DNA of 64,000 bases from Parafrankia discariae (GTDB lineage: Bacteria; Actinomycetota; Actinomycetes; Frankiales; Frankiaceae): NCBI RefSeq assembly GCF_000373365.1, contig NZ_KB891102.1, positions 203,632 to 267,631 of the forward strand. Direction: 5' to 3'. Positions 34,017 to 37,335 of the stretch are shown one piece after another. Both the position numbers and the translations under genes were made by a program. Each line of letters starts with the position of its first letter. Position 1 is the first letter of the stretch. The notes under the pieces were generated by a model. That model worked only from the letters and a program-made list of their open reading frames with translations, did not search any database and was not told where the DNA came from.

Positions 34017-34238
34017 ATGGCTGACGTGTCGGTACGGTTCCAGATCGCCGGGGATTCGGAGATCGTCCTGAACCTGGCGACCCCGCAGGCCGTACGGCTG
34101 GTGGAGGCGCTGATGGGCAAGGTCGCCGACGCCATGGCGGCGCCGGAGCGGCTCGCCGTCGGCAGCTCCTGGCAGCAGGGCCCGCCGGCGCCCCCGGCGC
34201 CGCCGGCGTTCAACCCCGGGCAGCGGCTGCCCCAGTAA
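34017..34238 (+). CDS. Small hypothetical protein
   Basis: 73 residues. An N-terminal part with alternating hydrophobic strands (ADVSVRFQIAGDSEIVLNLA) and a helix (VRLVEALMGKVADAM) is followed by a Pro-rich tail. A strong AGGAG lies eight bases before the ATG, which makes it a real gene. No family recognised. It precedes the large zincin-propeller gene by about 200 bases on the same strand. Confidence 0.7.
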   Translation: MADVSVRFQIAGDSEIVLNLATPQAVRLVEALMGKVADAMAAPERLAVGSSWQQGPPAPPAPPAFNPGQRLPQ

Positions 34239-34444
34239 CCCCCGGCGTCGGGTCGCCCTCGACGGCGCCCGGACGTCCACGGCGGGACCCACAGCGCGGC
34301 GGGACACACGAAGCGGACAACGGTGCGAGCACGCCTGCTCGCGCCGCGGGCGGTCACTGCCATCACCAGGAATCCGGCAACAACGTCGACGCAACGCGAT
34401 ACAACTCCGCAGAGCATTCTCTACGAAAGGACACCCGATTAGCC

Positions 34445-36715
34445 ATGGCGGGGGACGTACCGGCCGACGAGCGGATCCTCATCACGCTGGATGACCCCGG
34501 CCCCGAGGCGGACGCGCGGCGCGGCCTGGTCGGTCCGGTGGAAGACGCCGCCGGCGACGCCGTGGGTGAGCTCCCGGGAGGTTCCGGCGCCGGAACCGGC
34601 CCGGCCGGGGACGCCGGACAGCGCGACCCGGACGGCCCCGGCACCCAGGACGTGACCGAGGACCCCCGGCACCGGGAGCGCGCGATCCACCACTACGGCC
34701 GCGTCCGGGTCGTCGGCCGGCCGCTGGCGACCGCGGCCGTGGCGACCGCCCGCGGCGTGTCCGCGGGTGTCGCCCCGGTGGACGGGACCGTCGTGTCGAC
34801 GCTGAGCCTGCCCGGCGGGCTGAACCGCACCGAGGCGCTCGGGGTCGAGGCGTTCCGCCTGCGCGCGGGCGACGACTACCGCCGGCGCAAGCGCTCCCGG
34901 CCACGCGACGCCGCCCCCTGGGACATGAACCGGCCGTGCACGGACATCGCGCCGCCGCGCGGCTCGGCGGGCCCGGACACGGCCCCGCTCGCCCCCACCG
35001 TGCGCTCCCTGCTCAACGGGCTCGGAGCGGACGCCTCGGGGCCGGACGCGACCGGGCCCGGCCCGGCGGGGGCGGCCGACGCGGCGGACACCGCCGGGAC
35101 GAGCCCGGCCGGCGCGCCGTCCACCGGCCCGCTGAGCAGCTACCTGGAGGGCTCGGTCGCGGTCGGGCTCATCCTCGTCGAGGGGCCGACCCCGGCCCTG
35201 CAGCTCTCCGCCGCGGAACGCACGAAGATCGTGGCCGAGGTGCAGAACGGCCTGTCCTGGTACGCGACGCAGAACCCGGCCGCCGAGCTGACGTTCAGCT
35301 ACGACATCCAGATCGTCCGGCTGCCCACCCCCGCCAACCCGGGCGTGACCGACCTCGAGGCCCTCTGGCGCGACCCCACGATGAGCCGGCTCGGCTACTC
35401 GGCGAACTTCGACGGCGTCTACGACTACGTCGAGGCGCTGCGGGCCCGGCTGGGCACCCGGTGGGCCTACTGCGCGTTCGTCACGAAGTACCCGCTCGGC
35501 CACTTCGCCTACGCGTCGATCGGCGGCCCGCGCATGGTGCTCGCCGCCGACGCCGACGGCTGGGGCCCGGACAACATCGACCGGGTCTTCGCGCACGAGA
35601 CCGGCCACATCTTCGGGGCGCCGGACGAGTACGGCGGCGCCGGCTGCGACTGCGGCGGAAGCTGGGGCCGGTACGGGGTGCCCAACGGCAACTGCGACTC
35701 CTGCGCGCCCGCGCCGGTCGACTGCCTGATGCGGGCCAACACGTTCGCCCTGTGCCGGTACACGCCCGCGCACCTCGGCTGGGGCCACGGTGTGAGCGGC
35801 AACCCGGTGCTCGTCCAGGTGAAGGGCCTGGGCGGTCGGGGCAACTTCGACGTCGTCGCGCCGTCGGCCTACGCCGGCCTCACCCACGTCTGGCGGGAGA
35901 ACGACGCCGCCGGCTCACCGTGGCGGGACCCGTGGCAGACCGCGCAGGCGCTCGGCCGGGTGGATGCCGTGACGATGGTGCAGAGCACGCTGGCGAACCC
36001 GGGCCCGCTGGAGGTCGTCGTCCGCTCGGGCTCGCGGCTGTTCTTCCTGTGGCGGGACAGCACCGGGGCGTTCCAGTGGCGCGCCCCCGTCCAGCTCGCC
36101 CAGGGCGTCGGCGGGGTCCCGTCCCTGGTGCAGAGCCGACTGGGCGGCAAGGGCAACTTCGAGCTGCTGGCCCCGGCCGCCGATGTCGGCATCATGCACC
36201 TGTGGCGCAACCACGACGTCTACGGCTACCCGTGGAGCGCGCCGAAGCTGTTCGCCGCCAACCTGGGACGGGTCGACGCGATCAGCCTGATCCACGGGAC
36301 GCTCGGCGGCGGGGCCGGACTGTTGGAGGCCGTCGCCCTGGTGGGCACCCGGCTCGTCCACCTGACCCGCGACCAGGCGGCCGTCTGGCGCACCGGGGGC
36401 GTGTTCGCCGAGGGCGTGTCCGGCAACCCGGCACTGATCCAGAGCGTGTTCCCGGGCGCGCGCAACTTCGAGGTCGTGGTGCCGTCCGCGGGGACCGGGC
36501 TGATCCACTTCTTCCGCGACAACAACCGCGCCGAACCGGTGTGGAGCGGGCCCCGCCCGTTCGCGGCGGAACTGGGGCATGTGGACGCCGTCTCGATGAT
36601 CCAGAGCAACTACGACGGAAACCTCGAGGTGCTGGCCCGGGTCGCGAACCGGCTGTATCTGCTGTACCGCTCGGGCGCCGCGGCCGTGTGGTCCGCGCCG
36701 CGGCGCGTCTTCTGA
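34445..36715 (+). CDS. Zincin-type metalloprotease fused to a six-bladed beta-propeller
   Basis: 756 residues. The N-terminal ~240 are disordered or variable. A metalloprotease domain (~245-450) contains HETGHIFGAPDEY (384-396): the HExxHxxGxxD signature, with His384, Glu385, His388 and Asp394 as the likely third zinc ligand. A Cys-rich loop (CDCGG...CDSC...C) follows. Residues 452-756 are six ~50-residue repeats with GNFDVVAPS and LGRVDAVTMVQS-type signatures, probably a sugar-binding-type propeller. No signal peptide is visible, so its exit route is unclear. Start ATG has a distant GAAAGGA. Confidence 0.72.
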   Translation: MAGDVPADERILITLDDPGPEADARRGLVGPVEDAAGDAVGELPGGSGAGTGPAGDAGQRDPDGPGTQDVTEDPRHRERAIHHYGRVRVVGRPLATAAVATARGVSAGVAPVDGTVVSTLSLPGGLNRTEALGVEAFRLRAGDDYRRRKRSRPRDAAPWDMNRPCTDIAPPRGSAGPDTAPLAPTVRSLLNGLGADASGPDATGPGPAGAADAADTAGTSPAGAPSTGPLSSYLEGSVAVGLILVEGPTPALQLSAAERTKIVAEVQNGLSWYATQNPAAELTFSYDIQIVRLPTPANPGVTDLEALWRDPTMSRLGYSANFDGVYDYVEALRARLGTRWAYCAFVTKYPLGHFAYASIGGPRMVLAADADGWGPDNIDRVFAHETGHIFGAPDEYGGAGCDCGGSWGRYGVPNGNCDSCAPAPVDCLMRANTFALCRYTPAHLGWGHGVSGNPVLVQVKGLGGRGNFDVVAPSAYAGLTHVWRENDAAGSPWRDPWQTAQALGRVDAVTMVQSTLANPGPLEVVVRSGSRLFFLWRDSTGAFQWRAPVQLAQGVGGVPSLVQSRLGGKGNFELLAPAADVGIMHLWRNHDVYGYPWSAPKLFAANLGRVDAISLIHGTLGGGAGLLEAVALVGTRLVHLTRDQAAVWRTGGVFAEGVSGNPALIQSVFPGARNFEVVVPSAGTGLIHFFRDNNRAEPVWSGPRPFAAELGHVDAVSMIQSNYDGNLEVLARVANRLYLLYRSGAAAVWSAPRRVF

Positions 36716-36788: not shown

Positions 36789-37157
36789 TCAGCGGGGTGG
36801 CCCGCCGGGAGCCGCCGGATCGTCCCACCGCCGGCCCTCCCCCGGGCGGGCCGGCTTGCGCCGGGCGCGGGCGAGCCAGCCGTCGACGAACAGCCCCTCG
36901 TCGGGGGCGAGCGTCTCGCGCAGCGCCGGCGGGACGTCCGCCGTAAGCACCCCGGCGACCCCGGCGAGCCCGCCGGTCGGGCCGATCCGCTCCGAGGGCA
37001 GCACGACGAGCGCGAGCCGCGGCGGGAGACGCGCGGTCACCCGGCCCCAGTCGGCGATCAGCTCGAGCGCGGCCCGGGCCGCCTCCGGATCGGGGCCCAG
37101 GACGAGGAGCAGCTCGCGCTCGGTCCCCCAGGTGTCGTCGCGCTCCTGATCGGTCAC
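36789..37157 (-). CDS. Hypothetical protein
   Basis: 122 residues, acidic N-terminus and basic C-terminus (WLARARRKPARPGEGRRW). The middle looks alpha/beta (ELLLVLGPDPEAARAALELIADWG). GTG start supported by GGAGG six bases upstream. No family recognised. Divergent from the LON-domain gene and convergent with the zincin-propeller gene. Confidence 0.65.
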   Translation of the reverse strand: MTDQERDDTWGTERELLLVLGPDPEAARAALELIADWGRVTARLPPRLALVVLPSERIGPTGGLAGVAGVLTADVPPALRETLAPDEGLFVDGWLARARRKPARPGEGRRWDDPAAPGGPPR

Positions 37158-37335
37158 CCACGTCCTCCGTCCCGCGGGCTCCCGCCCACCGCACCGCTCC
37201 CCACCGCTGCCGGCCGTGGCCGCTGCCCACCGTGACCGCCGTGGATGGACGCGGCGGCCGGTACAGGACAGGCTGGGAGCATACGGGCCCGTACAACGGG
37301 TCGGTTACGCTCCGGCGAAGGGGGGAGGGAGACGG

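What the first reader, a model, noticed from the sequence alone, without database searches (positions are those of the whole stretch)
34017..36715. Possible two-gene zincin-propeller system
A small well-translated protein precedes a 756-residue protein with an HExxHxxGxxD zinc-protease site and six ~50-residue propeller repeats, but without a signal peptide. The architecture (disordered head, Asp-zincin, Cys-rich loop, lectin-like propeller) is not one I recognise. It could be a non-classically exported glycan-directed protease or an effector, with the small protein as partner or chaperone.
Basis: partly seen in the sequence, partly recalled or inferred. Interest (0 to 1): 0.65.

Follow-up and report, generated by a model that had tools for sequence, protein, structure and literature searches.

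The report
Protease paired with its own prodomain's twin
A Frankia-type soil bacterium carries an undescribed zinc-protease gene whose true partner is not the small gene upstream but a neighbouring gene that is a stand-alone copy of the protease's own front domain, a pairing found in many bacterial phyla and best read as a protease kept in check by a separate copy of its own pro-domain.

Summary
In detail: 34445-36715 (+) encodes a 756-aa protein with HETGHIFGAPDEY, an invariant Cys-rich loop, a CLM Met-turn and a PLL-like beta-propeller, without a signal peptide. The 73-aa gene upstream is real and always adjacent in Frankiaceae, but belongs to a 3-6 copy Frankia family whose other copies sit by unrelated genes. 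It is probably not the partner.

The real second gene lies outside the given coordinates: 36789-37157 (-), 122 aa. Its homologues adjoin the same protease in 20 of 29 non-Frankia loci (Actinobacteria, Proteobacteria, Acidobacteria, Nitrospira, cyanobacteria), in varying order and strand. In 397 Actinobacteria genomes, protease and partner each occur in the same two. The partner is homologous to the protease's N-terminal domain (hhalign E 9e-13), a stand-alone twin of that domain.

The protease core is a metzincin below every family cut-off. Across the family the same N-domain and core carry swapped C-terminal modules: PLL propeller, FG-GAP, ricin-B, hemopexin, BTRD1, or none.

Best reading: a leaderless pro-metzincin whose N-domain keeps it latent, with the stand-alone copy as trans-acting inhibitor, like protealysin-emfourin or Plasmodium SUB1-ProM but built from its own prodomain. 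The pair is shown; inhibition is inferred (about 0.5).

The parts
34445..36715 (+). Pro-metzincin/propeller protein, 756 aa
   Evidence: ORF; 28/35 Frankiaceae genomes; relatives in many phyla
34445..34969 (+). N-terminal domain (res 1-175): MAGDVPADER start, IHHYGRVRVV hairpin, TEALGVEAFRLR..Y..K..RP....WD helix region; homologous to the stand-alone partner
   Evidence: A6 alignment; hhalign A5 vs A6 prob 97.8, E 9.3e-13
34937..34939 (+). Cys165, six residues after the W of the WD motif: candidate zinc-blocking switch (inference)
   Evidence: Cys within 16 residues of the W in 16/22 N-domains and 0/28 partners
35135..35788 (+). Metzincin-type catalytic domain (res 231-448)
   Evidence: AF2 elements; conservation; weak M7/Reprolysin/M6 matches
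35594..35632 (+). HETGHIFGAPDEY zinc site (res 384-396)
   Evidence: H384, E385, H388, D394, E395, Y396 invariant in 32 sequences
35645..35755 (+). Cys loop C401/C403/C417/C420/C427/C437 with Met-turn C427-L-M429
   Evidence: layout compared with IgAse and archaemetzincin
35789..36712 (+). PLL-like beta-propeller (res 449-756), about six blades
   Evidence: AF2; Foldseek PLL/PHL lectins E about 1e-13
36789..37157 (-). Partner: 122-aa stand-alone homologue of the protease N-domain (GTG start, GGAGG Shine-Dalgarno), convergent, 73 bp from the protease stop
   Evidence: HMM from 8 non-Frankia partners: E 2.9e-15, the only strong hit of 641 window ORFs
34017..34238 (+). Upstream 73-aa beta-beta-alpha protein with disordered tail; member of a 3-6 copy Frankia family; probably not part of the system

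Best explanation
A protease-plus-antidote module. The 756-aa protein is a leaderless pro-metzincin: an N-terminal domain ending in ...RPxxGxxWD...(C) keeps the zinc protease latent in the cytoplasm, and an exchangeable C-terminal recognition module (here a PLL-type lectin propeller) aims it once it is released. The neighbouring 122-aa protein (36789-37157, -) is a stand-alone twin of that N-terminal domain and most likely binds the protease in trans, covering the active-site cleft as a dedicated inhibitor (immunity-like protein), so that any enzyme that has lost its own N-domain does not digest the producer. Shown: both genes, the homology of partner and N-domain, adjacency across phyla, co-occurrence, the conserved catalytic set and the C-terminal module swapping. 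Inferred: that the N-domain is a latency prodomain, that the partner inhibits, that Cys165 is a switch, that the enzyme acts after release, and that the propeller binds glycan.
For: Partner adjacent in 20/29 non-Frankia loci, upstream or downstream, same or opposite strand, often 4-100 bp away as if in one operon (in G354 the partner lies just upstream of the protease 5' end). No other neighbour family recurred to a comparable extent. Co-occurrence: all 28 protease-positive Frankiaceae genomes have the partner and none of 23 other-family genomes has either; of 397 Actinobacteria genomes the same two have each. Partner and N-domain are homologous (E 9.3e-13; HMMER hits from the partner profile to N-domains) and fall on two sides of one tree branch with mirrored sub-pairs (weak support). 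Partner and catalytic-core distances correlate (Mantel r 0.38-0.53, p<=0.003). Precedents: protealysin-emfourin, an intracellular metalloprotease and its inhibitor in one operon (PMC9505478); SUB1-ProM, a stand-alone propeptide-like inhibitor beside its protease genes (PMC6993865). PLL lectins have no recognised signal peptide, yet PLL2 and PLL3 were found extracellularly (PMC12203525).
Against: No activity or binding is known. Six Actinokineospora loci and L099, L105, L106 have no partner in their flanks; six of these nine genomes were searched whole and have none, so the partner is not always needed. Cys165 is missing in 6/22 N-domains, so a Cys switch cannot be general. No Pfam inhibitor or propeptide family matches above threshold. 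In Frankiaceae the partner is convergent, and in Pseudofrankia it lies about 3.4 kb away, so it is not co-transcribed there. The zincin fold rests on a partly low-confidence model.
Confidence: 0.5

Rival explanations
1. The shared domain is a docking, folding or targeting module, not an inhibitor: the N-domain and the stand-alone partner hetero-oligomerise so that the protease folds, is stored or is released by a leaderless route, the partner acting as chaperone or scaffold.
For: The MAGD[ILV] start is conserved in leaderless members of Gram-positive and Gram-negative lineages, which suggests a role for the extreme N-terminus itself; the partner lacks that start and the Cys. Many bacterial prodomains are intramolecular chaperones (own knowledge).
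Against: No common secretion or capsid genes recur next to the homologues; a phage-sheath gene is absent from the window genome and found in 4 of 21 Frankiaceae searched. Partner-less lineages keep the protease.
Confidence: 0.28
2. One reading: the upstream 73-aa protein is the dedicated partner or chaperone of the protease.
For: Always upstream and codirectional in 27/27 testable Frankiaceae loci.
Against: Two further paralogues in nearly every Frankiaceae genome are kept just as syntenically beside non-protease genes; absent at all non-Frankia protease loci; gap of 125-618 bp. The weak structural match is to the Lsr2 dimerisation domain, which points to chromatin, not proteases.
Confidence: 0.05
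3. The protease is a cytoplasmic housekeeping or lysis-released enzyme (for example stress-linked degradation of glycosylated envelope proteins), the partner being an ordinary regulatory subunit; nothing is aimed at other organisms.
For: Near-universal in Frankiaceae including Pseudofrankia and symbiotic Candidatus strains, not on plasmids or phages searched, so not an obviously mobile or symbiosis-specific effector.
Against: Elsewhere very patchy (1 of 396 other genomes in the Actinobacteria sample), spread over distant phyla, with swapped lectin-like and hemopexin modules, which suggests external targets.
Confidence: 0.17

Closest known systems
Protealysin-emfourin (Serratia proteamaculans; PMC9505478)
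   Same: Intracellular metalloprotease with a dedicated inhibitor gene beside it in the same operon
   Different: Protealysin is thermolysin-like (M4) and emfourin is a separate inhibitor family (own knowledge); here the protease is a metzincin and the partner is homologous to the protease's own N-domain
SUB1-ProM and other stand-alone subtilisin propeptide mimics (PMC6993865)
   Same: Free-standing copy of a protease prodomain encoded next to the protease genes; shown there to be a potent inhibitor
   Different: Serine subtilases of eukaryotes; here a bacterial metzincin family, and inhibition is untested
Igalysins / IgAse (M64; PMC12237041)
   Same: Asp third ligand followed by E and Y (D-E-Y), Met-turn beginning with Cys (C-I-M vs C-L-M), second Cys ten residues on, as in the IgAse structural zinc site
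   Different: Igalysin motif has one extra residue before the Gly; here HExxHxxGxxD, four more loop Cys, the shared N-domain and the partner gene
Snapalysin (M7) and M6/M12 reprolysin-like families
   Same: Best but sub-threshold profile matches at HETGH..GxPD.Y; snapalysin also has Asp as third ligand
   Different: All below curated cut-offs; no Cys loop or N-domain in common; snapalysins are secreted with signal peptides (own knowledge)
Matrix metalloproteinases (M10)
   Same: Prodomain + metzincin + C-terminal propeller layout; one homologue (L099) really carries four hemopexin repeats
   Different: No PRCGxPD switch; Asp not His third ligand; the C-terminal module is exchangeable between lineages
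Photorhabdus PLL/PHL lectins
   Same: Propeller fold (Foldseek E 1e-13); no recognised signal peptide in either
   Different: About 20% identity; seven blades in PLL, six modelled here; fused to a protease; sugar binding untested

Membership tests
Metzincin clan MA(M) | HExxHxx(G/N)xx(H/D) zinc motif | tested here: met
   H384, E385, H388, D394 invariant in 32 sequences; G391 is G 27, N 4, L 1
Metzincin clan MA(M) | Met-turn below the zinc site | tested here: met
   C427-L/I-M429 invariant M, sequence level only
Metzincin clan MA(M) | Metzincin fold | tested here: inconclusive
   AF2 gives backing helix, sheet and active-site helix, but 391-448 has pLDDT below 50; the Foldseek rows shown are propeller matches
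Snapalysin M7 (PF02031 / NF033628) | Curated score cut-off | tested here: not met
   17.5 vs 25 bits; NCBIfam 20.6 vs 300; homologues up to 22.2 bits
Igalysin M64 | Extra residue before the Gly (HExxHxxxGxxD) | tested here: not met
   HETGHIFGAPD has no extra residue versus IgAse motif; no Pfam M64 match at E<=1
Matrix metalloproteinase M10 | His third ligand and PRCGxPD cysteine switch | tested here: not met
   D394 invariant; Cys after WD in 16/22 N-domains without that motif
PLL lectin family | Seven-bladed propeller with W-motif blades | tested here: inconclusive
   Top Foldseek hits are PLL/PHL, TM about 0.6 by target; six blades modelled
PLL lectin family | Sugar binding | not testable with these tools
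   No ligand test possible
Protealysin-emfourin pair | M4 protease and emfourin-family inhibitor | tested here: not met
   No M4 or emfourin Pfam match for protease or partner at E<=1
Stand-alone prodomain inhibitor (SUB1-ProM-like arrangement) | Free-standing homologue of the protease N-domain next to the protease gene | tested here: met
   hhalign E 9.3e-13; adjacency
Stand-alone prodomain inhibitor (SUB1-ProM-like arrangement) | Inhibits the protease | not testable with these tools
   Needs purified proteins
Cargo of a contractile injection system | Contractile sheath genes in the genome | tested here: not met
   No PF04984 match in the window genome; 4 of 21 Frankiaceae positive

The most novel reading that the evidence does not exclude
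A previously undescribed, horizontally spread bacterial protease-immunity family: leaderless metzincins with swappable lectin, hemopexin or other targeting modules used against competitors, predators or hosts, in which the immunity protein arose by one ancient duplication of the protease's own prodomain.
Probability: 0.22. Interest if true: 0.82.

Novelty: new variant of a known kind. Interest (0 to 1): 0.62.

Why it matters
It defines a metzincin family that Pfam and NCBIfam do not recognise, present in at least six phyla, and gives it a specific partner gene. If the partner inhibits, it is a metalloprotease case of a bacterial stand-alone prodomain inhibitor, a compact genetically encoded metzincin inhibitor, and it gives Frankia researchers a concrete non-classical protease candidate that signal-peptide-based secretome surveys would miss. 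The pairing also gives two-gene expression constructs that could make the enzymes workable.

Tried and rejected
Upstream 73-aa gene as partner: rejected (paralogues elsewhere, absent outside Frankiaceae). Phage, plasmid and viral origin: no matches. Contractile-injection cargo: no sheath gene in the own genome. General Cys switch: Cys165 absent in 6/22 N-domains. Inhibitor_I9-like prodomain: suspected from the sequence pattern, but only one weak Fervidolysin_NPro-like hit (E 0.03) and no PDB profile hit, so not claimed. Sequence and structure names for the small protein: none by Pfam. Literature search for a Frankia extracellular proteomics hit gave nothing that could be mapped to this gene. 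A third structure job (partner) was not available under the cap.

Full report
What is there. The window lies in a Parafrankia-like genome: its protease is 93% identical to that of G003, which matches the Parafrankia soli contig L076 in contig length. The ORF 34445-36715 (+) encodes 756 aa and is intact in 28 of 35 Frankiaceae genomes but in none of 23 genomes of other families of the class. Its parts are: residues 1-175, an N-terminal domain with the invariant-type start MAGD[VI]; about 175-230, a disordered linker; 231-448, a zinc protease core; 449-756, a propeller. AlphaFold2 (27-row alignment) models the core up to the active-site helix and the propeller well, but not the linker or the Cys loop. 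Foldseek places the propeller with Photorhabdus PLL/PHL lectins (E 1e-13). Pfam and NCBIfam give only sub-threshold matches to reprolysin-like, M7 snapalysin and M6 models.

The protease family is much wider than Frankia. A search of one genome per species with a catalytic-domain alignment led by a Nitriliruptoraceae homologue returned 47 loci, 29 of them outside Frankiaceae: Actinokineospora, Streptomyces, Arthrobacter, Micromonospora, Caballeronia, Sphingomonas, Rhodoplanes, Methylobacterium, Nitrospira, Leptolyngbya, Acidobacteria, a deltaproteobacterium, Magnetococcales, a Phycisphaerales MAG and others. All that have a readable start are leaderless, most with MAGD[ILV], and share the N-domain signature H.YG.RV ... 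E.LGL.AF.LR.S..Y..AK..RP..G..WD. In 32 sequences H384, E385, H388, D394, E395, Y396, C401, C417, C427, M429 and C437 are invariant. C403 and C420 are lost together in one lineage (L071), which fits a pair, though L106 has lost C420 alone. The D-E-Y and C-L-M signature resembles IgAse of the igalysin family, where that Glu and the Met-turn Cys bind a structural zinc (PMC12237041); archaemetzincins use a Cys4 zinc site at a similar place (PMC3427221). The igalysin-defining extra residue is absent, so it is not filed there.

The C-terminal module is exchangeable: BTRD1 repeats (Luteitalea, Caballeronia, and by sequence Leptolyngbya, Sphingomonas and Actinokineospora), FG-GAP (Arthrobacter, Micromonospora), ricin-B lectin (Streptomyces), four hemopexin repeats (L099), PLL-like propeller (Frankia, Nitrospira) or nothing (Methylobacterium, Magnetococcales). 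So the constant unit is N-domain plus metzincin, and the propeller is one of several aiming devices (the aiming role is inference).

The small upstream gene. 34017-34238 (+), 73 aa, is present upstream in all 27 testable Frankiaceae loci. But a profile finds 3-6 copies per Frankiaceae genome. Two other copies are just as syntenic, one after a PMT-type mannosyltransferase gene and one between an F420-reductase-like gene and xerD, with no protease near, and no copy lies at any non-Frankia protease locus. Its conserved adjacency therefore says nothing special about the protease. Its model (beta-beta-alpha) best matches the Lsr2 dimerisation domain (prob 0.93 but E 0.64): a lead only.

The real partner. 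Genes around the non-Frankia homologues were compared all against all. One family stood out, recurring at eight loci at first pass: a 100-125 aa protein next to the protease. A profile from those eight non-Frankia proteins, tested on all 641 stop-to-stop ORFs of the window, hit 36792-37304 (-) at E 2.9e-15, i.e. the gene 36789-37157 (-), convergent and 73 bp beyond the protease stop. The next hit (E 0.0075) was the protease's own N-domain. Across loci the partner is adjacent in 20 of 29 non-Frankia cases, downstream on the opposite strand (Luteitalea, Leptolyngbya, Caballeronia, Bryobacterales), downstream on the same strand (Sphingomonas, Methylobacterium, Magnetococcales, two Streptomyces) or upstream on the same strand (Arthrobacter, Nitrospira, Rhodoplanes, Micromonospora, Nitriliruptoraceae) (for the last). 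In Frankiaceae all 28 protease-positive genomes carry it, and three fragmented assemblies show the partner or a piece of it without a detected protease. In Pseudofrankia it sits about 3.4 kb upstream. Of 397 Actinobacteria genomes exactly two have the protease and exactly the same two have the partner. In ten more genomes searched whole, the profile found only the adjacent partner and the protease N-domain. Rearranged but kept adjacency over phyla is strong evidence of a functional pair.

Partner equals N-domain. hhalign of the partner alignment against the N-domain alignment gives 97.8% probability, E 9.3e-13, over nearly the whole length. In a joint tree partners and N-domains lie on two sides of one branch (weak support), with matching inner pairs such as Caballeronia-Bryobacterales and Nitrospira-Rhodoplanes that cross taxonomy. 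Core and partner distances correlate (Mantel r 0.38-0.53, p<=0.003). This is what one ancient duplication followed by joint inheritance and transfer would give. Sixteen of 22 N-domains have a Cys within 16 residues after the WD motif; none of 28 partners has.

How it most likely works. Shown: gene pair, homology, co-occurrence, catalytic set, module swapping, no leader. Inferred: the N-domain keeps the protease latent, and the partner, being the same domain, binds the same face and inhibits in trans. [quoted passage not shown] The enzyme then acts after release by lysis or another leaderless route; PLL lectins, which also lack recognised signal peptides, are predicted to be extracellular and PLL2 and PLL3 were found there (PMC12203525). 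A contractile injection system is not supported as the route here.

Limits. Partner-less lineages exist (Actinokineospora, L099, L105, L106). The window protease N-domain is divergent and matches the partner profile only weakly on its own; the homology rests on the family alignments. The tree branch separating partners from N-domains is weakly supported. The organism's use of the pair, its substrate and its location are unknown.

Noticed in passing
34017-34238; G000 C107:65044, C122:18069, C91:15638 (L048-L050): Frankia-specific multicopy family of 50-130 aa beta-beta-alpha proteins (MADVSVRFxxxxDSEIVLNL...), three syntenic copies in nearly every genome; weak structural match to the Lsr2 dimerisation domain. 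Possibly truncated Lsr2-like modulators of nucleoid silencing.
   Followed up: partly
L029 1417-2463 (G028): Stand-alone PLL-like propeller protein in Pseudofrankia starting MAGEI, apparently the same protease architecture with the catalytic domain removed.
   Followed up: no
L032, L033, L034: The same propeller type is fused to other peptidase-like domains in Actinobacteria: a BSP-like domain, a C-terminal HEFGHMIGHPDEY zincin, and a papain-like domain.
   Followed up: no
L099 4572-6299: Deltaproteobacterial homologue with four hemopexin repeats (PF00045 E 1.9e-44): a bacterial prodomain-metzincin-hemopexin protein of MMP-like layout.
   Followed up: partly
L038 7136-11326 (G014): 1396-aa protein with a divergent zincin (HELAHLFDAPDEY ... 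CLM) followed by IPT-like repeats; a sister family of the catalytic domain.
   Followed up: no
L050 8257-15956 (G000:C91): Operon-like set of 471, 1284 and 788 aa proteins of unknown function beside another copy of the small-protein family.
   Followed up: no
G001, G003, G004, G010 (L115, L116): Phage-sheath-type genes (PF04984) in some Frankiaceae but not in the window genome; possible contractile injection systems.
   Followed up: no
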